A stretch of 64,000 nt of DNA, from assembly GCF_001553455.1 (NCBI RefSeq), contig NZ_BBOX01000121.1, forward strand, positions 1-64,000, given 5' to 3'. The notes beneath the pieces were generated by a model that was not told the origin of the DNA, ran no database searches, and saw nothing but the letters and a program-made list of their open reading frames with translations. The stretch is from Streptomyces hygroscopicus subsp. hygroscopicus (GTDB lineage: Bacteria; Actinomycetota; Actinomycetes; Streptomycetales; Streptomycetaceae). The position numbers and the translations under genes were made by a program. Position 1 is the first letter of the stretch. Every line of letters starts with the position of its first letter. This document shows, one piece after another, positions 33,037-49,907 of the stretch.

Positions 33037-34050
33037 ATGGCACGCACGATCAGCTATCGCGAGGCGGTCAACGAGGCGCTCAGGCAGGAGATGGAGCGCG
33101 ACGGGTCCGTCATCATCATGGGCGAGGACAACGCGGGCGGCGCGGGCAGCCCCGGTGAGGACGACGCATGGGGCGGTGTCCTCGGCGTGACCAAGGGGCT
33201 GCAGCAGCGATTCCCGGGACGGGTGCTGGACACGCCGATCTCGGAATCGGCGTTCGTCGGCGCCGCGGTCGGCGCCGCGACACGTGGCCTGCGCCCGGTG
33301 GCCGAGCTGATGTTCATCGACTTCATGGGCGTCTGTTTCGACCAGATCTTCAACCAGGCCGCCAAGTTCCGCTACATGTTCGGCGGCAAGGCCGTCACAC
33401 CGGTGGTGGTGCGGACCATGTACGGAGCCGGTCTCAACGCCGCCGCACAGCACTCCCAGTGCCTGTACCCGCTCTTCACCCACATCCCCGGCCTCAAGGT
33501 CGTCCTGCCCTCCAGCCCGTATGAGGCCAAGGGCCTGCTCATCCAGGCAATCCGCGACAACGACCCGGTCATCTTCTGCGAGCACAAGGCGCTCTACGAC
33601 ATGACCGGCGAGGTACCCGAGGACAGCTACACCATCCCGTTCGGCGAGGCCGACGTGGTCCGGGACGGTGACGATGTCACCATCGTCGCCCTCGGCCGCA
33701 TGGTCTCGGTGGCCGAGGAGGCGGCGGCCGAGCTGGCGCGGCAGGACGTCCAGGCGGAGATCATCGACCCGCGCACCACCAGTCCCCTCGACCGCGACAC
33801 GATCCTCGAGAGCGTCGAGAACACCGGCCGGCTTGTCGTGGTCGACGAGGCCACCCCACGCTGCGGCATGGCCGCCGACATCTCGGCCCTGGTGGCGCAG
33901 GAGGCGTTCGGCGCCTTGCGGGCGCCGATCGAGATGGTCACCGCCCCGCACACTCCGGTGCCCTTCGCGCAGCCCCTGGAGCAGCTCTACATCCCGGACA
34001 CGCAGAAGGTGGCCAACGCCGTCAAGAAGACCCTGGACTGGAAGAAGTGA
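33037..34050 (+). CDS. acoB: Acetoin dehydrogenase E1 component, beta subunit
   Basis: A 337-residue transketolase-like E1-beta chain. The opening RTISYREAVNEALRQEM and the segments FPGRVLDTPISESAFVG and EVVDPRT-like IIDPRTTSPLD are characteristic; the C-terminal transketolase domain holds the interface for E2 binding. Pairs with AcoA as an alpha2beta2 enzyme. The acoC start overlaps its stop (GTGA). Confidence 0.95.
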   Translation: MARTISYREAVNEALRQEMERDGSVIIMGEDNAGGAGSPGEDDAWGGVLGVTKGLQQRFPGRVLDTPISESAFVGAAVGAATRGLRPVAELMFIDFMGVCFDQIFNQAAKFRYMFGGKAVTPVVVRTMYGAGLNAAAQHSQCLYPLFTHIPGLKVVLPSSPYEAKGLLIQAIRDNDPVIFCEHKALYDMTGEVPEDSYTIPFGEADVVRDGDDVTIVALGRMVSVAEEAAAELARQDVQAEIIDPRTTSPLDRDTILESVENTGRLVVVDEATPRCGMAADISALVAQEAFGALRAPIEMVTAPHTPVPFAQPLEQLYIPDTQKVANAVKKTLDWKK

Positions 34051-35180
34051 CGGACCCCGTGAGCACCGAAGACACCATCACGAAGGTCACCATGCCCAAG
34101 TGGGGCCTGTCGATGAAAAGCGGCAAGATCACCAGCTGGTTCGTGGCCGAGGGCGACGAGGTGGCCGAGGGCGACGAACTGGCCGACATCGACACCGACA
34201 AGATCACCGGAGTGCTCGAGTCGCCGGTACCGGGTGTTGTGCGGCGGGTCCTCGCCGAGACGAACGAGGACGCCCCTGTCGGCGCCACTATCGCGCTGAT
34301 CGCTCCGGCCGACGTGCCCGAGGAACTGATCGACGAGGCCGCCCGCGCGGCGCGCGAGGAACTGGACTCCGGCGCGGTCGACGAGGTCGCCGGGCCTGCC
34401 CTCGGGACAGTGCGGGTGGACGGCCGTACGCTCTCCTACGCGACCCTCGGCACCGCGGCGGAGACCGTGCTGCTCATACACGGCTACGGCGGCGACAAGA
34501 ACTCCTGGCTCTTCGTACAGGAACCGCTGTCGGCCCGCGCCACCGTGCACGCGATCGACTTGCCCGGCCACGGCGACTCCACCAAGGACGTCGGCGACGG
34601 TTCCCTCGACACCCTCGCCGGCGCGGTGGCCGGTTTCCTCGACCAGCAGGGCATCGAACGCGTCCACGTGGTCGGGCACTCACTCGGTGGCGCCGTGGCC
34701 ACCGCTGCCGCCGCCCGCGAACCTGGCAGGATCGCGTCGCTGACCCTCGTCGCACCCGCCGGCTACGGCGACCAGATCAACGCCGACTACCTGCGCGGAT
34801 TCGCCCGCGCCTCGTCACGGCGGGAGCTCAAGCCGCACCTGACCCAGCTGTTCGCCGACCCGGGACACGTCACCCGGCAACTCGCCGACGACCTGATGAA
34901 GTACAAGCGGCTCGACGGCGTACAGCAGGCGCTCGACAGCCTGCTCGGCACGCTTCTCAATGGCGACCGCCCCGGAATCGACGCCGCCGGTCTGCTCCGG
35001 GAATTCACGGGCCCGGTCAGGGTGGTGTGGGGCCGCGCGGACCAGGTACTCCCGGCGGCCAACGCGGCTGCGCTGGAAGGCCGCGCCCAGATCGCCTATG
35101 TCGACAACGCCGGGCACATGGTCCACATGGAACAGCCCTCTGCCGTCGTCGACGCCGTGGCCGGGACCCTGGACGGCTGA
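34047..35180 (+). CDS. acoC: Acetoin dehydrogenase E2: lipoyl domain plus alpha/beta hydrolase
   Basis: A 377-residue dihydrolipoamide acetyltransferase of the acetoin type. Residues about 10-85 form a lipoyl domain with the modified lysine in DTDKITG. Instead of a 2-oxoacid dehydrogenase-style catalytic domain, residues about 125-377 are an alpha/beta hydrolase fold with nucleophile elbow GHSLGGA, an acid in GRADQ and the late His in AGHMVHME, as in other AcoC proteins. GTG start coupled to acoB. No dihydrolipoamide dehydrogenase (E3) gene follows, so E3 must be shared with other complexes. Confidence 0.93.
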   Translation: MTDPVSTEDTITKVTMPKWGLSMKSGKITSWFVAEGDEVAEGDELADIDTDKITGVLESPVPGVVRRVLAETNEDAPVGATIALIAPADVPEELIDEAARAAREELDSGAVDEVAGPALGTVRVDGRTLSYATLGTAAETVLLIHGYGGDKNSWLFVQEPLSARATVHAIDLPGHGDSTKDVGDGSLDTLAGAVAGFLDQQGIERVHVVGHSLGGAVATAAAAREPGRIASLTLVAPAGYGDQINADYLRGFARASSRRELKPHLTQLFADPGHVTRQLADDLMKYKRLDGVQQALDSLLGTLLNGDRPGIDAAGLLREFTGPVRVVWGRADQVLPAANAAALEGRAQIAYVDNAGHMVHMEQPSAVVDAVAGTLDG

Positions 35181-35324
35181 GGATACGAGTCGTCGTCCTG
35201 GCCGACGGCCATGAGCACGTCGCGCGCACCCTGACTCATGCCGTCGGTGCGGCGACCTGCCCGGAGTGTGAGCAGCGCTTCGTGGCCGTCGAGCAGGCCG
35301 TCGCCCGTTCCGCCGGAGGACCGC

Positions 35325-35404
35325 GTCGGGCCGGCGGGGCTCGAACCCACGCCCGGAACCGGGCCGGCGGGGTTCGAACCCGCGACCGGAACCGGGCCGG
35401 CCGG
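35325..35404. repeat. 33-bp tandem repeat with tRNA T-arm-like core
   Basis: Two and a half units of a 33-bp repeat whose core reads as a tRNA T-arm (GGGTTCGAACCC). The 21 bases at 35366-35386 match the T-arm region of the tRNA-Arg at 50145 in the same orientation with three mismatches. It could be a relic attachment site marking the left edge of the island, or chance in palindromic sequence. No gene is supportable in 35181-35564. Confidence 0.5.
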
Positions 35405-35564
35405 TAGACCGCGCGACGGGCGGCGGCAGGGCACGCCAAGCGCTCCGGACGTCAGATGCGGCCTTCAGGTTGCTTCCGCCTCAAATTTTTTCGAATGTGG
35501 CATACAACCGTATGGCTCCTTCATGGGTCCTTCACACGCAAGCCACAGAACCCTTGGGGAGAAC

Positions 35565-36212
35565 GTGTACCACCGCACCCGTATCAGACGCACCCGTATC
35601 AGACTCGTCGCCACCGTCGCCGCTGCCGGCATCTGCGCGCTCGGCCTCACCGCCTGCGACTCCGGCGACTCCGGCGACACCGTCACCGACAAGCCCAAGG
35701 CCAAGGCGTCGGCCAGCGCTACGACCGGCGAGAAGCCGGCCGCCGAGAAGCCGGCCGCCGAGAAGCCGGCCGCCGAGAAGTCCGCCACGCCCGACGTCGC
35801 CAAGGTCGGCGACACCATCGCGCTGAAGGGCCTGGAAGACGGCAACAAGCTCGACGTCACTGTCGTCAAGATCGCCGACCCGGCGAAGTCCAGCGATGAG
35901 TTCACCACACCCGGGTCCGGCAAGCGATTCGTCGGCGTCCAGTTCAAGCTGGTCAACACGGGCACCGCCGCTTACAGCGACAGCCCCGCAAACGGCGCCA
36001 AGATCACCGATGTCGACGGCCAGCAGTTCGATTCCACCTTCGCCGACATCACCGCGGGCCCCTCCATGTCCAGCGCCGTGAGGCTGAAGCCCGGCGGCAA
36101 GGCGTTGGGCTGGATCGTGTTCGAAGTCCCCAAGGCATCCAAGACGGACACGATCCAGTTCGCCATGAACTCCGGGATGGCCAACCAAACCGGTGAATGG
36201 AAGCTGTCCTAG
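35565..36212 (+). CDS. DUF4352-type lipoprotein
   Basis: A 215-residue exported lipoprotein. A basic N-terminus (HRTRIRRTRIRL) and hydrophobic stretch end in the lipobox GLTAC near residue 31. A linker of repeated EKPAA units (four copies) follows, then an immunoglobulin-like beta domain of the DUF4352/telomeric-repeat-binding-like type (FVGVQFKLVNTGTAAY; GWIVFEVPK). Such domains are found in surface lipoproteins of unknown role. I use the GTG at 35565, which has GGGGAG before it; earlier in-frame starts would bury the signal peptide. Two hairpins follow. Confidence 0.85.
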   Translation: MYHRTRIRRTRIRLVATVAAAGICALGLTACDSGDSGDTVTDKPKAKASASATTGEKPAAEKPAAEKPAAEKSATPDVAKVGDTIALKGLEDGNKLDVTVVKIADPAKSSDEFTTPGSGKRFVGVQFKLVNTGTAAYSDSPANGAKITDVDGQQFDSTFADITAGPSMSSAVRLKPGGKALGWIVFEVPKASKTDTIQFAMNSGMANQTGEWKLS

Positions 36213-36311
36213 CGTCCGCTGACCGACCCGGCAGCCTCCACTGCTCTGACCTCGACAACCGTGTCGTCCACACCCGCCACGAGGGCCGGCGCCACGGACG
36301 CCCTCTGCGGC

Positions 36312-36364
36312 GACCCCAAGAGGGGTCGAGCCCATAAGGCCCCGGACCATGATCGGTCCGGGGC
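36312..36364 (+). terminator. Tandem hairpin terminators
   Basis: GACCCC-AAGA-GGGGTC (36312-36327) and a 10-bp stem at 36339-36364 (GCCCCGGACC/GGTCCGGGGC) followed by GTTTGG, about 100-150 bp after the lipoprotein stop. Confidence 0.7.
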
Positions 36365-36444
36365 GTTTGGCTGGTGCCCCCGGCAGGGCACCACGCAGCA
36401 GGATGACCCCACTGACCTGCGGAATCTGATCGACAGGCTGGTGA

Positions 36445-36759
36445 TCAAGGGCAGTTTCGTACCCGTGTCGTGGGGTGGAGCGGGTCGACGAATGGCGAGA
36501 GGTCAAGCTTCGCGGCGTCGCACAGCTCCCGCCGCTCGATCCCCGCTTCATCACCCGAGGCCGCCGCAAGCTGGTCAGCCTGGTTGTTGTCATAGGCCGA
36601 CAGCACCTTGTACGCGGCCAGCCGCCGCAGTTCCTCGGGCGGCAGCCACACGGCAGTCAGTTCCGGGAACGACTGGTTCCCCGGCCTGCCGGCCTCGGCC
36701 ATCACCGGCTTGTAGTTCAGCCACGACCACGCATCGATCACGAACTGGCGCAGGCCCAT
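36445..36759 (-). pseudogene. Phage protein fragment, probably portal N-terminus
   Basis: About 104 residues from an ATG with GGAG before it (MGLRQFVIDAWSWLNYKPVM), ending soon after PEELRRLAAYKVLSAYDNNQA. Content and position, downstream of a terminase remnant on the same strand, suggest the start of a phage portal protein whose C-terminal bulk is gone. The portal call is inference; I cannot match a domain with certainty. Confidence 0.5.
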
Positions 36760-36799
36760 CTCCACTCCCAGGAAGTCGGCCCCGCGCCAACATCAAACC

Positions 36800-37288
36800 C
36801 TAGCCGCCGTCCACCAGGCCCGCCGTCGCGCTGTGGGGCAGTCCGTGACGAGTCCGAGGAGTGCGCCCCGCGCCACAGGGCACCACCGCGCGCACCGTCT
36901 TGCCACCGCCTGCCCTGCCGGTCACGGTCACCGAGCGAGCCAGCCGGTGAACCATCGGCCAGCCGAAGCCCCCGCCGCCGACCCGGTCCGAGATACGCCA
37001 CTGCGGACGAACCAGGCTGGAGTCGCCCACGGCCACCTCGACGGCGTCCGGCAGAGCAGCCAGGCTCAGCACGCAGCGGCCTCCCGCGTGCCGCAGGGCG
37101 TTGGTGACCAGCTCCGACACCACCAGCGCCACGCTGTCGGCCGCCTTCCTGCCAACATCGAATCGCAGACACTCCACGAAGGCGCGGGCGCCCTCACGGG
37201 CCATGGCGATAGAGCCCGGCCGGTTCATCGAGACAAAGATCGTCAGCGTCGCCGGTCCGGCCACCGGCAGGATCTCCACCTCATCCAT
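36800..37288 (-). CDS. RsbW-like ATP-binding protein
   Basis: A 162-residue HATPase_c protein of the anti-sigma-factor/SpoIIAB-like kind that abounds in Streptomyces. N-box [13 protein letters not shown] and the G-box [15 protein letters not shown] are visible. The ATG at 37288 is chosen because the domain begins right after it and GGGGTGAGG precedes it. It is divergent from the hsp20 gene. It may bind a stress sigma factor or an antagonist, but no partner is adjacent. Confidence 0.8.
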
Positions 37289-37413
37289 CAGCCTCACCCC
37301 GTACTCCGGCGCGTTCACCACGGCAACTGCCTGCCCTGTGTCGTGTGCCCCGCACAGCCGGTCACTCACACAACAACCCGCCACGACGGACAACAGGAAA
37401 GTTGCGCCCAGGC

Positions 37414-37442
37414 TTGTCAATTTTCGCCGGGCGAGCTATACC
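37414..37442 (+). promoter_or_regulatory. Vegetative-type promoter of hsp20
   Basis: TTGTCA (37414-37419) and TATACC (37437-37442) separated by 17 bp, 43 bp before the start codon. This is close to the HrdB consensus. No HAIR (HspR) or CIRCE element is evident nearby. Confidence 0.65.
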
Positions 37443-37484
37443 GGAAAACGCGGTGAACGCACTGGCATCCCGACGAAGGGAGTG

Positions 37485-37913
37485 ATGACGATGCTGATGC
37501 GCACCGACCCGTTCCGTGAGCTGGACCGCCTCACCCAGCAGCTCCTGGGCACACCAGCCCACCCCGCGGCCATGCCGATGGACGCCTTCCGAGCCGGCGA
37601 CACCTTCGTGGTCGAACTGGACCTCCCCGGCGTCGATCCCGAGACCATCGACCTCGACGTCGAGCGCAACGTCCTGACCGTCAAGGCCGAACGCCGGCCC
37701 AGTGCAGGCGAAGGCACCGAAGTCGTGGTCGCCGAGCGACCCACCGGCTCCTTCAGCCGCCAGCTGTTCCTCGGCGAGACCCTGGACAGCGAGCGCATCG
37801 ACGCCTCCTACGACGCCGGCGTGCTGCGCCTCACCATCCCAGTCGCCGAAGAGGCCAAGCCCCGCAAGATCGCCATCAGCGGCGGCAGCAGCCGCAAGCA
37901 GATCAGCAGCTGA
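37485..37913 (+). CDS. Hsp20/alpha-crystallin small heat-shock protein
   Basis: A 142-residue small heat-shock protein, very near the length of Streptomyces Hsp18 (143). It opens [18 protein letters not shown]; the alpha-crystallin domain spans about 40-130 ([20 protein letters not shown], then [11 protein letters not shown]). It holds unfolded proteins for refolding. AAGGGAG precedes the ATG. The DUF2267 gene follows after 81 bp, a common pairing in actinobacteria. Confidence 0.93.
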
Positions 37914-37994
37914 CCCCCTCAGGGGCGGGGGCCATCGCCCCCGCCCGCGCCCCCGACCACCACACCCTTCCGAGACGCGGGACCGGGAGGAACC

Positions 37995-38393
37995 ATGCCC
38001 ATGCACTGGGACGCATTCCTGGCAGCCATCCAAGAACGCGGCGAGTACGACTCACCCGAAGAAGCCGAACGAGCCGCCCGCGTCGTCCTCGCCCTACTGG
38101 GCGCACACCTGGTCGGAGAAGTGCGCGCCGAACTCGCCGCCCGCCTCCCCGACGCCTTGGCACTGGTACTCCTCAACCCCCTCCACTGCCACGAACCGCT
38201 CCCACCCGAACGATTCATCCGGGCAACAGCCGCATGGATCGAAGGCGCCACCGAACGCACCGCCACCTGGGACGTCAGCGCCGTGCTCAGCGTCGCGGCC
38301 GACCTCGCAGGCGAAGAACTGATGAACCAGATCCTGCTCCAGCTCCCCCCGGGCTATGACCTACTCTTCGGCCGCCCACAACCAGTCCGATGA
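37995..38393 (+). CDS. DUF2267 protein
   Basis: A 132-residue all-helical protein of the DUF2267 family: WDAFLAAIQERGEYDSPEEA, AELAARLPDAL and a C-terminal helix pair. Function is not established; the family is often near heat-shock and general stress genes. GGGAGGA precedes the ATG. Its 3' end overlaps the terminase remnant on the other strand by 33 bp. Confidence 0.85.
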   Translation: MPMHWDAFLAAIQERGEYDSPEEAERAARVVLALLGAHLVGEVRAELAARLPDALALVLLNPLHCHEPLPPERFIRATAAWIEGATERTATWDVSAVLSVAADLAGEELMNQILLQLPPGYDLLFGRPQPVR

Positions 38394-38903
38394 CCGCCTC
38401 TGCCGACGACCACTAAGCCTCTGATCATCCCCACCCCGCGGAGACGGCATCGTCGGATCCAGGAACAGATCCCACAATGCCCACACCGCCGAGTCCAACA
38501 GGTCCGGAGAGTCCTCCGTCTCGCCCTGCCCGACAAACATCGTCATCTGCTCTTCCAGCTCCGCAAACACCCTCGCCAGACCCGCATGAGAGACCCGAAC
38601 CTGCTCGTACAACTGCGCTACCGGAGCCGCCCTCGCCCGCTTTCCACGGGTCGCGTGAACGATTCGCCAGTTCACCGTCGGGTCGACCTGCTCCCACAGC
38701 GCGGGGAGGTAGTCGCCACCGCTGTTGGCCTCGATCATCACGCAGTCCGCCCGGTGCTCGTGGTACAGCGCGGCGGCCCGCTTCATCGCCTGCGTCGGCG
38801 TGTACCGGTCCTGCTCGCAGTGCAGCAGATACCCGCGGGGACGGTCGTCACCGAACATCGTCTCCGCCGGCCAGCCGCGCCCGGCGACGGTGGAGGCGGT
38901 CAT
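38361..38903 (-). pseudogene. Phage terminase large subunit, C-terminal fragment
   Basis: About 180 residues matching the nuclease half of a large terminase: YLLHCEQDRYTPTQAMKRA, ALYHEHRADCVMIEANSGGD, WRIVHATRGKRARAAPVAQLYEQ, then SPDLLDSAVWALWDLFLDP with the late acidic metal ligand. The ATPase half and the first catalytic aspartate region are missing. It is a 5'-truncated relic of a prophage packaging gene, on the same strand as the portal-like fragment downstream. Confidence 0.8.
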
Positions 38904-39110
38904 GTCCGCGTTCTCTGTGCGATGTGCGTGACTCAACGTTACGTCTGATGACGTTCCTCGGTGTACATGTCGCAGACGGTGATATTGCTGGCCAGTTGGC
39001 CGCTGGGCAGGTCCGCGCCGCCTTGGCCAAGTCGCGCCCTACCTGGGGATCGTCCGGTCTGGTGCCATGGTTGGGAGGCCGGGTCGGGACACCATCGGGT
39101 TGGGGGTGCT

Positions 39111-39218
39111 GTGGGGACATCCACGCGATGGAAGGGACCGAACGGCGACCGATGGAGCTCCGCGGCGAGGCGGCTGGCTCGCTGGCGGGAGGACTCGCGC
39201 AACGCGGATCAGCGGCTA
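39111..39218 (+). pseudogene. qatB: QatB-like protein, 5' part (split by transposon)
   Basis: The GTG at 39111 begins MGTSTRWKGPNGDRWSS and runs 36 codons to the transposon insertion point. MGTS is the typical opening of QatB proteins. The frame continues exactly, across the 5-bp target duplication, into the 3' part at 41770, giving a rebuilt protein of 262 residues. Upstream, where qatA would be expected, only about 170 bp of unassigned sequence separates it from the terminase relic. Confidence 0.7.
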
Positions 39219-40203
39219 GGTGTACTGACCGGGCACGTTGATCAATCGTGAGAATGGCGGCTGGTTGCCGCACGCGGTGTGGGGCCGGTGGTGGTTGTAC
39301 TGGTGGAGCCAACCGGCCAGTGCGTCGCGTCGTTCTTGCTCGCTGGTGTAGCAGCGGGCGTAGGCCCAGCCATCGGCCATGGTGCGGGTGGAAGCGCTCG
39401 ACCTTCCCGTTCGTCTGCGGGCGGTAAGGGCGCGTGAACTTCGAGGTGATCGAAAGCGCTTCGCAGTTGTCGCGCCACAGGTACGAGCGGTACGCGCCGC
39501 CGTTGTCCGACAGGACCCTCTCAATGGTGACGCCACGGTCAGCGAACCAGTCGACAGCCCGGTGCAGGAAGCCGACGGCGGTGACGGCTGTTTCGTCGTC
39601 GTGGACCTCGGTGTAGGCGACGCGGGAGTGGTCGTCGATGACGGTGTGCACGAATGCGTATCCGACCCTCGGGCCGCCGTAGGCGTTGCGTGACTTGCTC
39701 TGCGTCGCGGCGCGGTGCTTCTCGCCTTGGTGGCGGCCGACGTAGCGCCAGCCGCCACCGTCGGGGATGTTCCCGAGCTTCTTCACGTCCACGTGCACCA
39801 GTGATCCCGGATGGTCGTGCTCATACCGGCGGACGGGCTCACCGGTCTCACGGTCGACGTAGGCGAGTCGGTTCAGGCGGGCCGATCGCAGGATTCGATG
39901 CACTGTCGACGGGGCGATATTGAGTCTCGCAGCGAGCTGGACCGGCCCTTCCCGCAGACGTAGTCGCAGGCTGACGCACCTCTTTGTCACGGTCTTGGGT
40001 GTCTTGGCCGGAGAGCTCCGCGGTCGTGAGGATCGGTCCTGCATGGACTCGCCTGCGAGGTAGCGATCGACCCAGCGCTTCACGGTCGGCCAGGACACCT
40101 GGAAGCGGGCCGCGACTTCGCTGACTGGCCAGCCGTCGTCAGCGACGAGTCGAGCGACTTTCAGCCGGTGGCGCGGGGTGAGGGCCGCGTTCGAATGCGA
40201 CAT
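39216..40203 (-). pseudogene. IS481-family transposase with single-base frameshift
   Basis: A DDE transposase with N-terminal HTH (LVADDGWPVSEVAARFQVSWPTVKRW) and RNase H-like core: first Asp in GSLVHVDVKKLG, second in VLSDNGGAY and Glu in TNGKVERFH. At about 39386-39388 one extra base in a G-run (minus-strand C-run) shifts the frame right after the Glu. The true C-terminus (MADGWAYARCYTSEQERR to INVPGQYT) continues in another frame to the stop at 39216, inside the target duplication. Without the extra base the protein would be about 328 residues. It may be inactive, or be rescued by frameshifting, or the base may be a sequencing error. Confidence 0.85.
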
Positions 40204-40221
40204 TTCTGAGCTCCTAGACAG

Positions 40222-40260
40222 GCTGAAGGGCCGGCCATGGTGTGTGGCCGGCCCTTCAGC
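40222..40260 (-). terminator. 16-bp hairpin terminator
   Basis: Arms 40222-40237 and 40245-40260 pair perfectly with a 7-base loop, 30 bp past the VOC stop and 18 bp before the transposase start. It insulates the transposase from read-through out of the passenger gene. Confidence 0.8.
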
Positions 40261-40290
40261 TTGGAGATATGCGGGGAGGGATAGTGCAGG

Positions 40291-40656
40291 TCAGTCGACC
40301 GGGGAGACTCGGATGAGGTTGCCGTCAGGGTCCGTAATCACGAACGTGCGGCCGAAGACAGCATCATGCGGCTCCTGCACAACGTGGACCCCCTTCGAGG
40401 CCCACCTCGTGAAGATCTCGTCAATCGCCTCCGATGGCCCCGGCACCATGAGTCCGATCTCTGTCGTACGAGGGAGGCTCGGGACCGCGTGCTCGCTGTA
40501 GCCCGTCCACAGTGCGAACAGGACACCGGGGGCAGCTTCGAAGGCTACGTAGTGGGGACTGGTGAAGGTCGGTTCGATCTCGAACAGGTCGCTGTAGAAG
40601 GCGGTGGCGGCCTCGGCGTCGCGGACGCCGATCAGGAACAGGTTCGGTGCGGGCAT
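40291..40656 (-). CDS. VOC family (glyoxalase-like) protein, transposon passenger
   Basis: A 121-residue vicinal-oxygen-chelate fold protein: NLFLIGVRDAEAATAFYSDLF at the N-terminus and FVITDPDGNLIRV at the C-terminus are the paired beta-alpha-beta-beta-beta modules. Members include glyoxalases, dioxygenases and antibiotic-sequestering proteins; metal ligands cannot be placed with confidence here. GAGGAG lies before the ATG at 40656. It is divergent from the WYL regulator, which probably controls it. Confidence 0.85.
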   Translation of the reverse strand: MPAPNLFLIGVRDAEAATAFYSDLFEIEPTFTSPHYVAFEAAPGVLFALWTGYSEHAVPSLPRTTEIGLMVPGPSEAIDEIFTRWASKGVHVVQEPHDAVFGRTFVITDPDGNLIRVSPVD

Positions 40657-40752
40657 GGAGTGCTCCTCAACTCGTTGATTTCTCGGTCCAGCACCCAGTG
40701 GATCAACCAATCGCGACGGAACCTGTCACCTTTTCTGAGAACATGGGTAAGC

Positions 40753-41718
40753 ATGAAGGCTTCAAGGCTCCTGCATCTCCTGCTGCTCCTGCAGACCCGT
40801 CAGCGGCTCACTACCACGGAGCTCGCCGCGCGTCTTGAGGTGTCCCGGCGGACTGTGCTGCGGGACGTCGAGGCGCTATCGACAGCGGGCGTGCCCGTCT
40901 ATGCCGAACGTGGGCGGAACGGCGGGATCGTCCTGCTCCCCAGTGCACGGCTCAGCGCATCCCATCTGGAACCACCAGAACTGGAGGCCCTATCCGTGGC
41001 CGGCTTGGACAGCGCACTACGTGAGCGAATGGGCCTAACTGCGGTGTGGGAGTCGGCCGAGCGCAAGATCGCCGCCCGCCAGGCTGCAGCACCTGAGTCG
41101 CCGAGCCCGCTGCGCCTGGCTGACCTTGTGCTTGTCGACAGCACCGCGTGGTTTGCTGCCCCCGAGGCAGCGGTCGAAGTATCGGATCTGGCCTCGACCC
41201 TGCGACACCGGCGACGCCTTCGAATCCTGTACCGGCGCAGCGCCGAGAGCCAGGCCTCGACACGGGTGGTCGACCCGTACGGGATCGTGGCGAAATCAGG
41301 TCGCTGGTATCTCGTCGCCGATGACCAGGGCGACAGCCGGCTGCTCGCTCTGGAACGACTGTCGGCCTTCGAACAGCTAGACGCACCAGCCGTGCTCCAA
41401 CCAGGCGAAACCCTCCGCACCAGATGGGCCGAGTTGAAGAAACGCACTGAGGAGCAAGATCGCGTGAGCGTGACCATCCGCCTGCCGGAAAAGGGTCTCG
41501 ACCTGGCGCGGCGCATCCTCGGCACCCGCATCCACCATGTCTCCGACGCGGAAAAAGGCTCGTGCGTCGTCGTCGTGCGCTACCCCGACATCGAGTCGGT
41601 GCGTCAGCTTCTGCAGTTCGGCGACCACATCGAGGTGCTCGCCCCTGAGACGGCCCGCGCACGCATCAGTCAGCTCGCCAGGGACCTGGCTGACAGGCAC
41701 TCAACCCCCGCATCGTGA
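40753..41718 (+). CDS. HTH-WYL family regulator, transposon passenger
   Basis: A 321-residue transcription regulator of the DeoR-like HTH plus WYL-domain class. The HTH is at residues 5-50 (LLLLQTRQRLTTTELAARLE, SRRTVLRDVEALSTAGVPVYAERG). The WYL domain follows near 140-230, with the segment GRWYLVADD, then a WCX-type C-terminal extension. Such proteins sense ligands or nucleic acid and often sit in defence or mobile contexts. It is divergent from the VOC gene across 96 bp and ends 25 bp before the right transposon end. Confidence 0.88.
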   Translation: MKASRLLHLLLLLQTRQRLTTTELAARLEVSRRTVLRDVEALSTAGVPVYAERGRNGGIVLLPSARLSASHLEPPELEALSVAGLDSALRERMGLTAVWESAERKIAARQAAAPESPSPLRLADLVLVDSTAWFAAPEAAVEVSDLASTLRHRRRLRILYRRSAESQASTRVVDPYGIVAKSGRWYLVADDQGDSRLLALERLSAFEQLDAPAVLQPGETLRTRWAELKKRTEEQDRVSVTIRLPEKGLDLARRILGTRIHHVSDAEKGSCVVVVRYPDIESVRQLLQFGDHIEVLAPETARARISQLARDLADRHSTPAS

Positions 41719-41769
41719 TTGCCGATCAGGTCCCCTGTTCTCAATCAACGTGCCCGGTCAGTACAGCTA

Positions 41770-42450
41770 GAAGAGATCGCCGCAGACCATTTGCGTGCCC
41801 TGCACGAGACGCTCCGCGCCGATCGATCGGCTTTCGGGTTGTATGACACGGCCTGTGTAGCCGGTGAACGGCTCGCCGGGGTCCTGGGCTCGCTGGCCAC
41901 TGAGGGCGCCGAGTCCTCGGACGCGCTCGTCGCACGTCTCGTCTCGGAAGTCGGCGGAGACGGTGGCACACTCGCCGACGCCGCGGTGCGCAGAGGGGTG
42001 GCCGCGGCGGTCCGCGATGTCCGGGACAGGCATCCCGAGATGGACGACGCCATGAACGGGAATGGCGCGGGCGGTGGCTTTGCCTGGGACATCCTGTGCG
42101 ATCTCTACCAGGTGTTCTTCGCCGATATGGTGGGGGAGTTCCTCCGGTCCGTTGTTGCCGAGCACGTCAAACTGGCCGTACCGGTGCTCATCGCGACCGA
42201 TCCGGAAGGCAGGATCGCCGACTGGGTCGCGGAGAATGTGGTGGACCTGGTACCGAATCCCTGCGAGGCGTCCGCCGAAGTAACGGGCCACGCGCAAGCC
42301 GTGGACACCGCGCAATCGGTGGTGGGCGTTGCGCAGGATCCCCCGACCGCACTGCCCAAGATCGCCGAATCACTGGTACCGCGGGCGGTCGGCAAGGTAC
42401 TCGGTCTGATCCTTGAGGAGACCACCGGAGAAGCGGGAGCCGCGGCATGA
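41770..42450 (+). pseudogene. qatB: QatB-like protein, 3' part (split by transposon)
   Basis: 226 residues in frame with the 5' part: EEIAADHLRALHETLRADRSAFG follows the lost junction DQRL. The helical C-terminal half includes WDILCDLYQVFFADMVGEFL. No good start codon exists within it; a TTG at 41719 lies inside the transposon and could give a chimeric product. The stop overlaps the qatC start (ATGA), as expected for qatB-qatC. QatB is an accessory protein of the Qat anti-phage system; identity rests on MGTS start, length 262 and coupling to qatC. Confidence 0.7.
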
Positions 42451-43769
42451 CCGGTTCCGACCATTTCCTGTGGTGGCGTGGCCACAGCGCGGACCGGCCT
42501 CGCGATGACCGCTGGACGGAGATCGGCGAGGAAGCCTTTCAGGAAAAAGAGCGCCGCATCACCGGCCGGCACCACCTGCCCGGTCCGGTCCCCGACTGGG
42601 CGGAGGACCTGTTCCGCGTCGCCAGGGCGGCGTTCATTGCCGGCAAGTACGTACGCCGTACCGGCGTGCGGGACCGGTGGACCCGCCGCATCAGCCTCGC
42701 CGTGCCCGTCACGGAACACGAGCGATGGCAGAGCGCAGCCGTCCGTACCCATCTCACCGCACTCCTCCAGATCCTCACCGGGGACCTCTGGCATGTGGAC
42801 TTCCGGCCTCTCACCGGTCACCAGGTCGAGGAGGCGATGATCTTCCCTGACGACCCGCGTGCCTCCGAAGTCGCGTTGTTCTCCGGTGGACTGGATTCCC
42901 TCAGCTGGGCAGCCACCCGCTCGCGCGCCGACGACCCCCGACCGCTGCTGCTCGTGATGTTCCGCGAAATCGGCCTACTACGTCTCCAGCAGCGGGTGTA
43001 CAAGGCCGTCGAGCGACTGGGCGGACACCGGCAAGTAATGCTGCTACCGATGAGCCAGACCCCGGCGGGTGACGGCTCCGGACTGCGGCTGGAAACCTCG
43101 TCCCGCACCCGCGGTCTGCTGTACGCCGCCGGCGCGATCCGCGCCGCTACCGCGCACGGAGTAACCACCGTCCACATCCCCGAGAACGGTCAGCTCGCCC
43201 TCAACCCCCCCTTGACGCCAGCACGTTCGGCGGCCTGCTCCACCCGTTCCGTGCACCCATGGACGCTGGGCCGTCTGAACGCCTTGCTAACCGCCGTGGG
43301 TGACGCCGGAACTGTGGTACGGGTGGTCAACCCCTTGGGGCGGCTGACGAAAGGCGAGGTGTGTAAGGCTGGGCGTGATGCAGGTCTTACCCCGTCCGAC
43401 CTGGAATCCACCCTGAGCTGCGGCAAGCCACCCGCCCGCCGCAGCGGCGGCCCTCGCATTGCCAATTGCGGCGTTTGCTTCCCGTGTCTGGTACGTCGCT
43501 CCGGGCTGCTCCACGCAAACGGCACGGACGGCACCCAGTACGAGGCATTGCCATGGGCGGATGACCTACCCTTCGACCGGGGCACCGACTGGCGCGCACT
43601 GCATCTGTGGCTGCTCGACCGGTACAGCCTCACGGATGTCCTCACCGATACTCCGCTGCCGCCGGATACAGACCCGGCGGTGGCGTTCGATTTGATCAGG
43701 CGCGGGCCGGAGGAGCTGGCCCGGCTGCTTCAGATCGCGGATTCGGCCAAGGCTGCTGACGCGGCGTAG
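42447..43769 (+). CDS. qatC: QatC, QueC-like protein of Qat anti-phage system
   Basis: A 440-residue protein whose second half is QueC-like. The ATP-binding PP-loop is ALFSGGLDSLSWAA (near residue 155), and a cysteine cluster near 340 (SCGKPP, then NCGVCFPC) matches the QueC zinc site. QueC makes 7-cyano-7-deazaguanine, but this protein has a long extra N-terminal half, as in QatC of the Qat defence system, where the chemistry is put to anti-phage use. Start coupled to qatB by ATGA. Neither qatA (ATPase) nor qatD (TatD-like nuclease) is present nearby, so the system is incomplete as seen here. Confidence 0.8.
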   Translation: MTGSDHFLWWRGHSADRPRDDRWTEIGEEAFQEKERRITGRHHLPGPVPDWAEDLFRVARAAFIAGKYVRRTGVRDRWTRRISLAVPVTEHERWQSAAVRTHLTALLQILTGDLWHVDFRPLTGHQVEEAMIFPDDPRASEVALFSGGLDSLSWAATRSRADDPRPLLLVMFREIGLLRLQQRVYKAVERLGGHRQVMLLPMSQTPAGDGSGLRLETSSRTRGLLYAAGAIRAATAHGVTTVHIPENGQLALNPPLTPARSAACSTRSVHPWTLGRLNALLTAVGDAGTVVRVVNPLGRLTKGEVCKAGRDAGLTPSDLESTLSCGKPPARRSGGPRIANCGVCFPCLVRRSGLLHANGTDGTQYEALPWADDLPFDRGTDWRALHLWLLDRYSLTDVLTDTPLPPDTDPAVAFDLIRRGPEELARLLQIADSAKAADAA

Positions 43770-44079
43770 GCGGCGATGTGGGGCGCGAGTCACGACTCCC
43801 CCAGACCTGCCGTCATCCGAGTTAGCGACCGAGCCTGGGCGGCCGCCTGGCGAATATTTAGCCCCTGCCAGCACTGTGCCGCGAAGGATCCGTGTGATCC
43901 CGATGTGCTCCAGTCACTCCTGCACGCCAAAGCGAGGCTCCGGACCGGCTCGGCACCGAGCTGCTCGGGCAGGCGACCGGTCGCAGTGCGGGCGGGGTCG
44001 CTGTTGTCACTGGCTTCCGGTATCAATCAATGCGGAATGATCGCTGAACACGGTCGTGGATCACAGGGTGGGGTAACAA
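43770..44079. other. Intergenic region, nothing recognised
   Basis: About 310 bp between qatC and the nuclease-like gene, where qatD would be expected. No TatD-like coding sequence, terminator or repeat is evident. A mirror-type GAGTCACGACTC palindrome lies at about 43787-43798. Confidence 0.4.
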
Positions 44080-45228
44080 GTGACTGATCAGCCAGTATTC
44101 GTCCTGGGAAATGCTCTGCAGGCCCTGGAGCCGACCGCGTTCGAGACCGAGGCGGAGTTCCAGGAGCTCCTCGCGCGCCATCCACGGGTACTGGATTTCG
44201 GCTCGCTTGCCGATGGGCAGTCGTTGCGGCTGGTACTGGTGGCACGGGAGATGGGTGTTCCGACGAGTGGGGAGAGTGGTCCGGCGTACTGGCTGGACCA
44301 TCTATTCGTCGACGCTGACGGGGTGCCGACGCTGGTGGAGGTCAAGCGAGCGAGCGATACTCGTATCCGGCGTGAAGTGGTGGGCCAGATGCTTGACTAC
44401 GCGGCGAACGGAGCGCGCTACTGGCCCGGAGCGCTGCTTCAGCGCTCTTTCGAGGAGACCTGTAGTGCGGACGGACGACCGCTGGACGAGGCGTACGGGG
44501 AACTGCTCGGTGACCGCTCCCCTGAAGAGTTCTGGTCGACGGTCGAGGAACGGCTGGTCGCCGGGCAAATGCGGCTGCTGTTCGTCGCGGACCGGATTCC
44601 GCTGGAGCTGAGAGCGATCGTCGAGTTCCTCAACCGGCAGATGCGGCAGACTGATGTGTACGCGGTCGAATTGACCCAGTACCGAGGCAACGGAGACCTC
44701 CGCGTCCTCGTCCCGCGTATCCACGGGGAGGTCGCCACGGCAGCGAAGTCCCCTTCCGGCCGCCGCACCAAGCAGCGGACCACGCGTGCCGACATGGATG
44801 CGGTCATCCGGGCTCGGCTCGCCCCGGAACTGAGTCGGATAGCAACCGCTCTGCTCGATCATGCGACGGTCAGGGGACGGCTGGAGGGCGGAACGGCCAA
44901 GTATCCCAGCATGTCGGTCTACTATCCGGTCGCCGGTCGGCAGGTGCCGTTCTGGACGTTATCGTTGTACGACAACCCCGTGAAGGAGGAATTGGCCTTC
45001 AGCTTCGGATCGATCACTCATCACCTTGGTCTCGACCGCGCTGCGGCGTTTGCGAGGTCTCTGCCGGCTGTCCCCGAGCTGGCGAAGAAGCTCGAGGTGC
45101 AGCGGGAGAAGGGCTACAAGGGCTGGCCGTCGGTCCCTCTATCCGCCCTCGCAGCCGAATCCGGCGCGGTCGAAGGGATCCTGGCGGCAATCCAGGAGCT
45201 CATGGACGACCAGGAAACCTCCGCCTGA
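44080..45228 (+). CDS. PD-(D/E)XK nuclease-like protein (NucS-type fold, DUF)
   Basis: A 382-residue protein. Residues about 65-110 hold a nuclease-like core, YWLDHLFVDADGVPTLVEVKRA, in which the D and ExK of PD-(D/E)XK enzymes are placed as in NucS/RecB-type domains, followed by EVVGQMLDYAANGARYW. The C-terminal part (about 225-380) has no domain I recognise. GTG start with GGTGGGG before it. The island setting between qatC and other defence-like genes suggests an anti-phage role, which is inference. Single gene. Confidence 0.7.
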   Translation: MTDQPVFVLGNALQALEPTAFETEAEFQELLARHPRVLDFGSLADGQSLRLVLVAREMGVPTSGESGPAYWLDHLFVDADGVPTLVEVKRASDTRIRREVVGQMLDYAANGARYWPGALLQRSFEETCSADGRPLDEAYGELLGDRSPEEFWSTVEERLVAGQMRLLFVADRIPLELRAIVEFLNRQMRQTDVYAVELTQYRGNGDLRVLVPRIHGEVATAAKSPSGRRTKQRTTRADMDAVIRARLAPELSRIATALLDHATVRGRLEGGTAKYPSMSVYYPVAGRQVPFWTLSLYDNPVKEELAFSFGSITHHLGLDRAAAFARSLPAVPELAKKLEVQREKGYKGWPSVPLSALAAESGAVEGILAAIQELMDDQETSA

Positions 45229-45490
45229 GTGGCTCGGTGAATGGACGTCGGCAGCAAGAAGCCGGGGAGGGTGATTCCGGGATGTCCTCAACGTATTATT
45301 CCCTCGTGGCCAGCGTGTGGCTCTACCTGGAAGATGACCTCCGGGGCCGGTCGCAAGCCGGCGCTAACGGAGACGAATGAATGCGCCGCATGGAGTGGCG
45401 TATGTCGGCTGTGAGGATTGTCGCGCAGCTCCTCCAGATGGGCAGGTGCACCCTGTTCCCACGATCAATTCGTGCCGTGCCTACCGCGCT

Positions 45491-46657
45491 TCACTCATGG
45501 GCTCGTGTTGCCTCCGGAATCTGTGACGGAGGCGGTACCGAGCGCGGCCATTTGCCATCTTCCAACGCCCCCAGAACTTCCTGCTTGATCTGAGCTCGCT
45601 GACCGCTGCTGACGAGTTCTCTGGGCAGATAGCCATCGCGTACCTCGTAGGGGCGCAGTGCGGATCGGATGAGCGCGTATTCAGCCGGGTGCATATCGAC
45701 GAGAAGCTGGCTGGCTGCTTCTTTGGCCTCGGCCAGGGCGACAATGAGAGGGCTTTCCCGCTCACGCTCGCGCAGCGCCTGGCTGAGCTGGCGAACGCAA
45801 CGCTTGTACTCCATGCGTCGCTGCTGGACCGCTGCGAGGAAGCGCCGGGCGTTGAGTACTTCCAGGGCTTCCGCTTGGGGGATCGTGTAGAAGCTGTCCG
45901 GAAGACTTCCCAAACCATGCGGCGTCTTGGCTCGTGCACGCCCCACGACCATGTACCCGAGGGCTCTCAAGGCGTTCTCCCATCGGCCCAAAAGCAGCGG
46001 ATGGCGCAACGCCATGTTGCGTTCTTCCTGGTCCTTGGCATCCTTGGCGGCGGCGTTCCGCACCGCAAGGTCCGAGGCCGCTATCAGCGCCTCAACGTCC
46101 GGGCTACGTGGTGCCGTGATCAGGCCATTGGAACAGGCGTAGGCGAATTCCTCATGTACATCGTGGAAAGCTGGGGTCTCAGGCACGTCGCCCAGTTGTC
46201 GGCGGGCGCGCTCCTCTTGGACAAGACCGGCGTACTCATCGGAGAACACCTGCCTCAGCCAACCCTGTGCGGTGCGGTGGGAGCTTGTGCCGTTCTTTCT
46301 TTCCGCGCTGTTGTTGAAGTCGTTGCGGCGTAACTTCTTGGCAAGTACTCCAGCCTCGTGACAGCGGTTGCGTACGCGGCGGAGGCGGTACTCGGTGCGC
46401 TGCAGGCGAGGATCGTTGGTGTAGCGCATCCGTTCGCACGCGACCTGGAGCTCTCCGCAGGCGCAGAGCAGTGCGTCCTGCCAGTCCAGGCGCCATTCCG
46501 CCTTCCGCAGCAGGCGACGGGTCTTCTGCGGGATGTAGCCATTGGTGGCTTCCGCGATGGATACGGTCACGAGGTTGTCGAAGCTGCGCGTGATCAGCGG
46601 CACGAGCTCGTCGCTGGGGATGTGCTCGACGTCGACAAGCTGCAGTCTCTCCACCAC
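45491..46657 (-). CDS. Hypothetical protein of unknown function in defence island
   Basis: A 388-residue, mostly helical, soluble protein with high Arg/Glu/Leu content and two likely coiled-coil stretches (about residues 75-120 and 285-320). No signal peptide, membrane helix or catalytic motif is visible. GTG start with GGAAGG about 5-8 bases upstream. It lies alone between the nuclease-like gene and the integrase relics; base composition is lower in GC than chromosomal neighbours. I do not recognise the family. The gap at 45229-45490 shows no gene. Confidence 0.6.
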   Translation of the reverse strand: MVERLQLVDVEHIPSDELVPLITRSFDNLVTVSIAEATNGYIPQKTRRLLRKAEWRLDWQDALLCACGELQVACERMRYTNDPRLQRTEYRLRRVRNRCHEAGVLAKKLRRNDFNNSAERKNGTSSHRTAQGWLRQVFSDEYAGLVQEERARRQLGDVPETPAFHDVHEEFAYACSNGLITAPRSPDVEALIAASDLAVRNAAAKDAKDQEERNMALRHPLLLGRWENALRALGYMVVGRARAKTPHGLGSLPDSFYTIPQAEALEVLNARRFLAAVQQRRMEYKRCVRQLSQALRERERESPLIVALAEAKEAASQLLVDMHPAEYALIRSALRPYEVRDGYLPRELVSSGQRAQIKQEVLGALEDGKWPRSVPPPSQIPEATRAHE

Positions 46658-46799
46658 GCCGACCTTCCTGCCTCCGGCTAGTACGCCTTGGCGGGACGCA
46701 CCATTTGCCCTTACTGCTGCATCAGGCTAACGAGAAGGCTTACAGGACGCAGCCAGAACGCTGCAGTCAGTGAGTGGAGTTGTGCGTCGCCCCGCTCCG

Positions 46800-47095
46800 G
46801 TGGTAGGCGCGTTCGGCAGGCCACACAGTGGGCCGCTGCCGGGTCGGACTGGCGGGCCGGCGATTTGGTGTTCACCACGCGCAGCGGTCTGCCGTTAGAG
46901 CTGCGCAACCTCTACCGGTTCGGCTGGATCGCGGTGGCTGCTGGACCGCCACGGGTGCGTCTGCACGACACCCAGCATGGATGCGCCTCGCTGTTGTTCG
47001 CGGCCGGGTTCGCCCCGCGCGTCGTGATGGAGATCCTGGGCCACTCGCAGATCGCGGTCACGATGAACCTCTTGATGGCAAGGCCTACAGAGTAG
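46800..47095 (+). pseudogene. Tyrosine integrase fragment with broken active site
   Basis: The catalytic-domain remnant of a phage or AICE-type integrase: DLVFTTRSGLPLE, then RVRLHDTQHGCASLLFAAG and PRVVMEILGHSQIAVTMN. The normal HxxR box (HDTRH) here reads HDTQH, so the catalytic Arg is lost. After VTMN the family sequence breaks off before the nucleophile Tyr. It has neither N-terminal half nor C-terminus. Confidence 0.75.
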
Positions 47096-47323
47096 GAGCA
47101 GGTTGCTCGCTTCGTCTGGCCCACCGAGGCTGCTGGGGGTGATGTGGGCTCGTTCGAGATTGGCGCGTTGCCATGAGGCTTGAGCAGTGGCCCGCTTCTC
47201 TCGCTCAGAGAACCACCCGCAGGCGAAGCAACGCGGCTCATCAAGCAACAGGTGAGGTGCGAAATCACCTTTTCTCGGACTTTCGTTCCAATGTCGAGAA
47301 ATATTCCATTTACTCGGTACGGA
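47071..47323 (-). pseudogene. HNH endonuclease fragment
   Basis: From an ATG at 47323, about 80 residues show a CFACGW cysteine pair, LERAHITPSSLGGPDEASNL (the HNH His and Asn) and LCRPCHQEV (second cysteine pair and last His), the zinc-framed HNH pattern. It then runs into the antisense of the integrase fragment, so its end is lost at a recombination joint near 47070. Confidence 0.65.
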
Positions 47324-47981
47324 CATAGGCCCCCCTCTGGCTGCTGCCCGCAGCATGCCAGCCGCCTATGACATCACAGCCTGGGCTTGGGCGAGCGGCT
47401 CATGGTGTTAACCCGCGAGGCGGGACGTTTTCAGCACCGCTTCAGGAGAGAGGCTGAATGATCTGCGGCTTTGCAGGTCGAGGAAGCAAACGGCTACCCG
47501 ACCGCGGGACGCCGGTGTTGACCGTTGTTGTCCCCTGCATCTGGCACGTTTGTGGCACGAACCTCAGCCGGCGACAGCCAGCCACGACGGCGGGTGCGCC
47601 GGCCGACCGGGCGCGCATGTGTCTCGTTGCACCCCCACCGGCGTCCACCACGCTGCCAGAGCCGTCGACCAGAGCAAGCTACGACGGCCAGCACGCGATG
47701 ACGGTGCCTGGGCCCTCAGCTTGGGAGGCTCGGGGAAAACCTCACGGGCGGTTGCATCGCCGAGCAGCGGTGGGGCGGTCCAGTGCCTCCTGCTCAGCCA
47801 CCTGCCCCCGGTGTTCCCCGCCAGTGCCCGTGATCCGGCACGGAGCTGGCACACCTGTCCGTCGTCGACTGTGACCTCAGGCCGGAAACTTCGCTTCCGG
47901 ACACGTAAGTGCGGAAACGTAGGTACTGTAGGCATTCATCGCCAGGCTCGGCGGGGGCGGGTGTAGTGGCACGGAGGGGCA
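47324..47981. other. Intergenic region, nothing recognised
   Basis: About 650 bp without a supportable gene on either strand, between the HNH fragment and the AIPR gene. It probably contains further decayed mobile-element sequence and the AIPR promoter. Confidence 0.4.
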
Positions 47982-49688: not shown

Positions 49689-49907
49689 TGCTTGCACCCA
49701 AGGGATGGGTGGGTGAAGCGGATTTGGGTTGGTGCCGCTTTGGCGTGAGTGATCAGGGCCCCGTAAGCTTGCGGCGCGTCGGGCAGCCTGTGTACCTGCC
49801 CGTAAGCGCGACGTTGGGGCCATGACCTGCGAGGCTCGCGCCAAAGTGGCCACCCGTGGAGCCGACCGTCCCAGCCGCGACGTATCCCTTCTCTGGGCAT
49901 CAGGTGG

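What the first reader, a model, noticed from the sequence alone, without database searches (positions are those of the whole stretch)
39111..42450. A qatB-like defence gene split by a transposon, rebuilt exactly
The 36 codons at 39111-39218 and the frame from 41770 to 42450 join across a GCTAG duplication into one 262-residue protein that starts MGTS and whose stop overlaps qatC by ATGA. This reveals a Qat-type anti-phage gene that simple gene calling would miss entirely. The frame match and target duplication are seen directly; the Qat name is inference from start, length and neighbour.
Basis: partly seen in the sequence, partly recalled or inferred. Interest (0 to 1): 0.8.

Follow-up and report, generated by a model that had tools for sequence, protein, structure and literature searches.

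The report
Two-gene Qat defence cut by transposon
A Streptomyces-type anti-phage gene called qatB has been cut in two by a jumping gene, and its intact relatives turn out to be a two-gene version of the Qat defence system, found in bacteria most of which, among those checked, show no known way to make the small molecule proposed to fuel it.

Summary
Eight relatives of the same genus have the gene uninterrupted, collinear across the junction.

The Qat name is right, though no QatB profile finds it. The predicted fold of an intact relative matches QatB crystal structures (Z 11.8; next chain 4.8). QatC is clear.

It is not four-gene qatABCD: qatA and qatD were detected in 0 of 54 named relatives. 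Their QatC falls in a supported Actinomycetota branch; 11 of its loci lie inside BREX/Pgl. 48 of 54 loci have a QatB starting MGTS.

Most likely QatC, an ATP-using QueC-like enzyme, modifies QatB's N-terminal glycine. But 15 of 21 Qat-bearing genomes, this one included, have no detectable CDG synthase (QueE) and none has Tgt, which argues against host-made CDG as donor. In this strain the system is probably dead: qatB is cut in its core and QatC has lost an otherwise invariant aspartate.

The split gene is ordinary; the two-gene branch is the interesting part.

The parts
38915..39110 (+). upstream stretch conserved with the empty-site relatives (leader/promoter candidate)
   Evidence: blastn: 38915-39217 is 85% identical to G279; shorter stretches of it (80-86%) match G366, G391, G357, G036 and G154
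39111..39220 (+). 5' part of qatB: 36 codons, GTG start, MGTSTRWKGPNGDRW tail motif and first helix
   Evidence: translation; collinear with intact relatives
39215..39220 (.). left copy of the 6-bp target duplication (GCTAGG)
   Evidence: NCTAGN at other copies
39221..41765 (.). IS481-family element with cargo; 22-bp identical inverted ends at 39221-39242 and 41744-41765
   Evidence: NF033577 259.8 bits, cut-off 224
39221..40203 (-). IS481 transposase, frame broken near its C-terminal part in this copy
   Evidence: two overlapping frames here; one continuous frame in G150, G165 and G048
40291..40656 (-). cargo gene: VOC/glyoxalase-superfamily protein
   Evidence: PF00903 46.4 bits; kept in the G150, G165 and G048 copies at 87-97%
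40753..41718 (+). cargo gene: HTH_11-WYL-WCX transcriptional regulator
   Evidence: PF13280, PF08279, PF25583; kept in the same three copies at 82-94%
41766..41771 (.). right copy of the 6-bp target duplication (GCTAGA)
   Evidence: GCTGGA in 5 of 8 relatives
41766..42450 (+). 3' part of qatB (helical core), TGA overlapping the qatC start
   Evidence: the search of G000 returns only the two pieces of this gene
42447..43769 (+). qatC, 440 aa, with SGGLDS and the Cys zinc motif; carries Gly at position 66 where relatives have Asp
   Evidence: PADLOC QatC 9.2e-63; PDB QatC 3.6e-38; D in 53 of 53 other two-gene and BREX rows with a residue there and in 10 of 10 four-gene rows

Best explanation
The feature is a qatB gene of a naturally two-gene Qat defence unit (qatB-qatC, no qatA or qatD), disrupted by insertion of an IS481-family transposon that carries a VOC protein and a WYL regulator. 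In intact relatives QatB most likely loses its start methionine, presents an N-terminal glycine (GTS) to the active site of its partner QatC, and is modified there in an ATP-dependent reaction; the modified QatB or the QatBC complex then blocks phage growth. The insertion falls at codon 36, inside the second helix of the modelled fold, so the tail that carries the acceptor glycine is separated from the domain expected to hold QatC, and the system in this strain is probably dead. Shown here: the split, the element and its target duplication, the empty sites, the predicted QatB fold (of an intact relative), the QatC family, no qatA or qatD detected. Inferred: the modification, the defence activity and the loss of function.
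For: Collinear intact relatives. Fold: AlphaFold model of the intact Streptomyces cavernae QatB, pLDDT 82.8, best matches 9y01_A and 9y02_A (QatB) at Z 11.8 and 11.7, next row 4.8. Profile link to Streptomyces four-gene QatB, probability 93.7, E 1.9e-7, over 38 columns. MGTS in 48 of 54 loci, with the extended pattern MGTS...GP. QatC motifs kept apart from D66. Published work on P. aeruginosa and E. coli Qat shows that QatBC alone defends against lambda and, for P. aeruginosa, that the MGTS glycine is essential (PMC13279940: abstract and sections 8-10 read, passages of sections 4, 6 and 7 seen).
Against: No QatB profile in PADLOC or NCBIfam and nothing in Pfam recognises these proteins, no PDB sequence search does, and Foldseek alone gave no match at E <= 0.001. 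QatC scores under NCBIfam's cut-off (213.6 against 280 bits). Z 11.8 is below the level of about 13 up to which the tool warns that helical models may match by common arrangement only. The MGTS starts were chosen by looking for that motif, although each coincides with the first residue of the profile match. Defence by a two-gene actinomycete locus has not been tested. CDG, the donor proposed for the reaction, appears not to be made in most of the hosts checked.
Confidence: 0.82

Rival explanations
1. The two-gene loci are remnants of qatABCD that lost qatA and qatD and are decaying; they have no function of their own.
For: Broken or partial copies exist: G047, G344 and G358 hold only fragments; L144 and L145 have no detectable qatB frame (L138 also has none, but its contig ends 323 bases before the match); the window's own copy is split.
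Against: 44 two-gene and 11 BREX-embedded rows fall, with three further relatives in which no qatB was seen, on one branch (SH-aLRT 99, quick tree with long-branch warnings) apart from the ten four-gene rows. MGTS is kept in 48 of 54. Crude nonsynonymous to synonymous ratios per site between the intact relatives L094 and L095 are 0.30 (qatB) and 0.17 (qatC).
Confidence: 0.12
2. QatBC works as in the CBASS Cap9 reaction, using 7-carboxy-7-deazaguanine (CDG) made by the host.
For: QueC fold, ATP motif and an N-terminal glycine partner, as argued in PMC13279940 (section 10). Some hosts have the genes: G391, G036 and G297 have QueE, PTPS and a full-length QueC-type match close together, G279 and G225 have QueE and PTPS. 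PTPS is found in 16 of 21, this genome included.
Against: QueE undetected in 15 of 21 Qat-bearing genomes by both profiles used, including 10 of 13 with the two-gene form; Tgt in 0 of 21. The Tyr/Asp pair that reads CDG is Thr/Ser in all 55 two-gene and BREX rows (aligned through). Weakness: the QueE profiles ring in 10 and 8 of 14 control genomes, and C. glutamicum, the one actinomycete among the controls listed, is not among those that ring.
Confidence: 0.25
3. The 5' and 3' pieces are two separate genes and the fusion is a coincidence.
For: The 3' part is an open frame of its own with a TTG start inside the element.
Against: Eight relatives at 72-91% identity read through with no gap at the junction, and the flanks carry the duplication typical of this element.
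Confidence: 0.01
4. In BREX-bearing hosts QatBC is not a free-standing defence but an accessory module of BREX/Pgl.
For: In eleven distinct loci qatBC lies beside pglY, in ten of them with pglX on the other side and in L113 with the contig ending first; at least three changes of this trait on the QatC tree; BrxD, PglZ, BrxC/PglY and PglX of L015 confirmed by PADLOC.
Against: Most loci, the window's included, are not next to BREX. BrxD occurs in 87 of 384 genus genomes, and of these I know only four (G103, G161, G013, G264) with qatBC beside it. It could be ordinary defence-island clustering.
Confidence: 0.2

Closest known systems
qatABCD anti-phage system (P. aeruginosa, E. coli)
   Same: QatC with ATP motif and zinc site; QatB with MGTS start and, by prediction, the same helical fold; qatB directly before qatC.
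   Different: No qatA and no qatD detected; QatB too far for existing profiles (11% identity to the solved one in the structural alignment); first helix starts at residue 13 in the model, against a tail of 65 residues reported for P. aeruginosa QatB. The second substrate-site residue is Ser, where the paper reports an invariant Thr; 5 of 10 four-gene rows here have Ser too.
Type IV CBASS Cap9-CdnD
   Same: QueC-family enzyme acting on a partner with an N-terminal glycine (works-like, by inference).
   Different: Partner is QatB, not a CD-NTase; the CDG-reading Tyr/Asp pair is Thr/Ser.
BREX type 2 (Pgl) loci of Streptomyces
   Same: Eleven relatives of this qatBC pair lie inside such loci.
   Different: The window's copy does not; this genome's BrxD match lies on another contig (C122).
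IS481 family, cargo-bearing members such as TnRErm46 of Rhodococcus equi
   Same: IS481 transposase, NCTAGN 6-bp duplication, inverted ends beginning TGT, a regulator among the cargo (PMC6794481, passages).
   Different: Cargo is a VOC protein and a WYL regulator; about 2.5 kb; transposase frame broken in this copy.

Membership tests
qatABCD (four-gene Qat) | QatC: QueC-like protein with SGGxDS, RxRxxxF/Y, HP and the Cys zinc site | tested here: met
   PADLOC QatC 9.2e-63, PDB QatC, motif columns; NCBIfam cut-off not reached, 213.6 of 280 bits; Gly for Asp at 66 in this copy
qatABCD (four-gene Qat) | QatB fold | tested here: met
   model of the intact relative L094: 9y01_A Z 11.8, rmsd 3.9, 191 aligned; 9y02_A Z 11.7; next row 4.8; not among the rows shown by Foldseek alone
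qatABCD (four-gene Qat) | QatB sequence profile | tested here: not met
   0 hits in PADLOC, NCBIfam and Pfam; PADLOC 0 of 6 members of A1. PADLOC QatB models match the eight Streptomyces four-gene QatB in part: PDLC02211 six of 8, PDLC02213 two of 8 at E <= 1
qatABCD (four-gene Qat) | MGTS start of QatB | tested here: met
   window; 48 of 54 related loci
qatABCD (four-gene Qat) | qatA (KAP NTPase) in the operon | tested here: not met
   0 of 54 named loci and the window stretch; the same model finds it in its eight training loci and, independently, in L147 and L148; no close QatA elsewhere in 13 genomes
qatABCD (four-gene Qat) | qatD (TatD nuclease) in the operon | tested here: not met
   0 of 54 named loci and the window stretch; found in the eight four-gene training loci and in L147 and L148; in L109 the contig ends just after qatC
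qatABCD (four-gene Qat) | anti-phage activity | not testable with these tools
   needs plaque assays
Type IV CBASS (Cap9) | CDG-reading Tyr/Asp pair of the QueC-like enzyme | tested here: not met
   T266/S268 in the window and in all 55 two-gene and BREX rows
IS481 family | IS481 transposase | tested here: met
   NF033577 259.8 bits, cut-off 224
IS481 family | 6-bp NCTAGN target duplication | tested here: met
   perfect in G150, G165, G064; one mismatch here and in G048; consensus as in passages of PMC3053399 and PMC6794481

The most novel reading that the evidence does not exclude
[quoted passage not shown] the pair has been taken into BREX/Pgl loci at least three times, perhaps as a working partner.
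Probability: 0.45. Interest if true: 0.75.

Novelty: new variant of a known kind. Interest (0 to 1): 0.55.

Why it matters
The published work shows that QatB and QatC suffice in E. coli against some phages and leaves open what QatC attaches to QatB. Here is a whole branch that seems to use only those two genes in nature, hidden from current QatB profiles, and, where checked, mostly in genomes without a detectable CDG synthase. That makes the open question testable by a simple genetic experiment and points to a different donor. The BREX nesting suggests a link between two defence systems. The transposon itself is ordinary, but it provides a natural knock-out.

Tried and rejected
QatB profiles: Pfam, NCBIfam and PADLOC gave no hit for the joined protein, nor PADLOC for any of the six members of A1. 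PDB sequence searches with two QatB alignments found no QatB; the four-gene QatB alignment found 9vll_A at E 0.0027. Foldseek alone showed no QatB among the 50 rows listed and nothing at E <= 0.001; QatB appeared in the VIA-align re-ranking of Foldseek's candidates. A 5-bp GCTAG duplication was rejected for a 6-bp one after comparing other copies. Relaxed selection on this qatC is only suggestive: 14 nonsynonymous to 32 synonymous private changes, against 1 to 19 in L094, Fisher p 0.027; having two deviations at conserved columns is not unusual, as L106 and L132 also have two. QatA-like matches elsewhere in G366, G036 and G154 are weak, best E 3e-16 to 3e-12, 25-29% identity, and were taken as other ATPases. 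Viral contigs hold 33 QatC relatives at 24-30% identity; 130 plasmid records match, all under 60% identity. Rfam found only a tRNA in 34000-52000. Searches for print: Qat with BREX, Streptomyces and QueC together gave 0 papers; BREX with QueC gave 13, of which I looked at one, a table entry on qatABCD and CBASS; Qat with Streptomyces and 'defence systems' gave 0. The library lacks bioRxiv and most subscription papers, and PMC13376578 on QatB and QatC was not held. The named loci were found with a query made from the branch's own members, so the 54 are not a census of QatC.

Rows dropped: in the tree, L052, L061, L146, L150 and L158 were left out as too short; L016 and L045-L051 as likely duplicates of named loci; L018, L062 and L063 had not been put into. 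The 54 loci are L094-L146 and L157 of the 65 returned; the other eleven are L147-L156 and L158, of which L147 and L148 are four-gene. Several of the 54 are cut by a contig end (L109, L113, L118, L121, L124, L131, L138, L139, L142), so a missing neighbour there is weaker evidence. No count of QueE in Qat-free genomes was made, so I claim no association between Qat and the lack of QueE.
Full report
What was checked. The window lies in a 9.46-Mb genome of 679 contigs, on contig C121. GTG at 39111 opens 36 codons, VGTSTRWKGPNGDRWSSAARRLARWREDSRNADQRL, and the frame resumes after the element to give 262 residues ending in a TGA that overlaps the ATG of the next gene. Uninterrupted genes exist in relatives: a search of 199 genus genomes found five over the whole or nearly the whole length (G154, G036, G103, G161, G013), and a search of 392 with QatC led to seven more, G279, G366, G391, G357, G345, G312 and G264. 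In the eight that were aligned at the DNA level (G279, G366, G391, G357, G036, G154, G345, G312) there is no gap at the junction, identity is 72-91%, and all start with GTG.

The element. It has identical 22-bp ends and a transposase that matches NCBIfam IS481 at 259.8 bits, cut-off 224. Full-length copies with the same cargo occur in G150, G165 and G048, and partial ones in G090, G219, G064 and G180, of 295 genomes searched; 265 of the 295 have some match, the rest of those listed being shorter and weaker. The flanks of the copies with both ends show a 6-bp duplication of the form NCTAGN, as reported for IS481 (PMC3053399, one passage) and for the cargo-bearing TnRErm46 (PMC6794481, passages); the majority of IS481 elements make 6-bp duplications (PMC10045372, passages). 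The cargo is a VOC-superfamily protein and a WYL-domain regulator, kept in the three other full copies, whose transposase frame is continuous where the window's copy has two overlapping frames. The element is a new member of a known kind.

What the split gene is. The neighbour is QatC by PADLOC (9.2e-63) and by the solved QatC chains (3.6e-38), though under NCBIfam's cut-off. QatB is invisible to PADLOC, NCBIfam, Pfam and PDB sequence searches. Three lines tie it to QatB. First, a profile comparison with QatB of eight Streptomyces-type four-gene loci gives probability 93.7, E 1.9e-7, over 38 columns; PADLOC recognises those eight only in part, its two QatB models matching six and two of them, the first member weakly (E 0.017). 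Second, the N-terminus: MGTS in 48 of 54 related loci; in three no matching start was found and in three no qatB frame. These starts were picked by looking for the motif, but each coincides with the first residue of the profile match. Third, fold: the AlphaFold model of the intact S. cavernae protein (48-sequence alignment, pLDDT 82.8) has as its best matches the two QatB crystal chains, Z 11.8 and 11.7, with the next chain at 4.8. Foldseek alone gave nothing at E <= 0.001, so this rests on the second aligner; the tool warns that helical models below about Z 13 may match by common arrangement, but the gap to the next row and the coverage (191 of 215 residues) speak against that.

A two-gene Qat. 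Models of qatA and qatD made from eight four-gene loci of the genus (plus one qatD remnant) find both genes in those eight, as they must, and independently in L147 (Myxococcota) and L148 (Saccharibacteria), but in none of the 54 named relatives of this QatC nor in the window stretch. Of 392 genus genomes, 25 match this QatC: thirteen carry the two-gene form, the window's included; eight carry complete four-gene loci, one (G184) a four-gene remnant and three (G344, G047, G358) fragments. A search with one QatA, which does find the divergent QatA of G297 and G225, found nothing comparable in the 13 two-gene genomes; three have weak ATPase matches. On a QatC tree of 75 rows (quick method, SH-aLRT support), 58 lie on a branch with support 99, all Actinomycetota where named: 44 two-gene, 11 inside BREX and 3 in which no qatB was seen; the ten four-gene rows lie outside. 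The tool warns of long branches that meet, this branch among them, so its place among the outside rows is unsure. In the BREX cases qatBC sits beside pglY, with pglX on the other side in 10 of 11; BrxD, PglZ, BrxC/PglY and PglX of L015 are confirmed by PADLOC. The tree needs at least three changes of this trait. BrxD occurs in 87 of 384 genus genomes, so qatBC is a minority companion of BREX. PMC13329287 reports qatA near 34.3% of its QatC cluster, which leaves room for two-gene loci; it also says, without data, that qatB occurs at a similar frequency, which speaks against a large QatBC-only share unless divergent QatB was missed there as it is by the profiles here (section 7).

Mechanism. PMC13279940 shows that QatBC suffices against lambda, that the QatB glycine and QatC active site are essential, and that the reaction is unresolved. 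The two-gene proteins keep the tail (M1 G2 T3 S4, G9 P10 and W15 invariant in the 48-row alignment) and the QatC motifs, so the same kind of reaction is the best guess. Which donor is used is less clear. The residues that read CDG in Cap9 and QueC are Thr/Thr in the published QatC and Thr/Ser in all 55 two-gene and BREX rows; five of ten four-gene rows have Ser as well. I asked whether the hosts can make CDG. QueE is matched in 6 of 21 Qat-bearing genomes with one profile (none over its cut-off, G007 only weakly) and in 5 of 21 with another (one over its cut-off); 15 of 21 have neither, among them 10 of 13 with the two-gene form and 5 of 8 with the four-gene form. Tgt is found in none of 21, against 14 of 14 control genomes. 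A full-length QueC-type match other than QatC is seen in G391, G036 and G297 only. PTPS, the family of QueD, is matched in 16 of 21, this genome included. Limits: the QueE profiles ring in 10 and 8 of the 14 control genomes, with C. glutamicum not among those that ring; draft assemblies; possible salvage or phage-made CDG; no background count in Qat-free genomes. Within these limits the result argues against host-made CDG as the general donor.

This strain. The search of the window's genome returned only the two pieces of this qatB. The insertion falls at codon 36, inside the modelled helix 32-53, so neither piece has both tail and core. QatC carries Gly where 53 of 53 other two-gene and BREX rows with a residue there and 10 of 10 four-gene rows have Asp (position 66). 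That position aligns to residue 75 of chain 9vlk_A, whose numbering fits the E. coli QatC of PMC13329287, where 75 is the first residue of a listed motif. Private nonsynonymous changes are more numerous than in the nearest relative (14 of 46 against 1 of 20), which is suggestive only. The system is probably dead here.

Verdict. The split gene is an ordinary transposon insertion. The two-gene Actinomycetota branch, its nesting in BREX and the missing CDG route make it a new variant of a known kind.

Noticed in passing
window 44080-50216: Defence-island content after qatC: a PADLOC PDC-S11 relative (44080-45228), an unknown 388-aa protein (45491-46657, minus), an integrase remnant (46688-47092, just under Pfam's cut-off), an AIPR/AbiU-type protein (47982-49688) and a tRNA-Arg (50143-50216).
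   Followed up: partly
window 38361-38936 (-): Remnant of a phage terminase large subunit (Terminase_6C) just upstream of qatB.
   Followed up: no
window 35308-35411: ARAGORN calls tRNA-Ser(cga) on both strands of one stretch; Rfam does not confirm it.
   Followed up: no
L112, L113, L114, L115, L116, L118, L120, L123, L124, L015, L017: qatBC nested in BREX type 2/Pgl loci next to pglY.
   Followed up: partly
L125 (Streptomyces oceani) 11400-12347: A BrxD-like gene (227 bits) directly after qatC, without the rest of BREX detected in the fetched stretch.
   Followed up: no
L149, L151-L156, L158: Distant QatC relatives in Pseudomonadota, Planctomycetota, Chloroflexota and other records with neither qatA nor qatB detected by my models.
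   Followed up: no
L056, L063 (G332): One genome carries two closely similar qatABCD loci on different contigs.
   Followed up: no
G000:C122:35577-36884: The window's own genome has a BrxD match on another contig, 68% identical to the one in L015.
   Followed up: no
L173-L205: 33 viral contigs encode QatC relatives at 24-30% identity.
   Followed up: no
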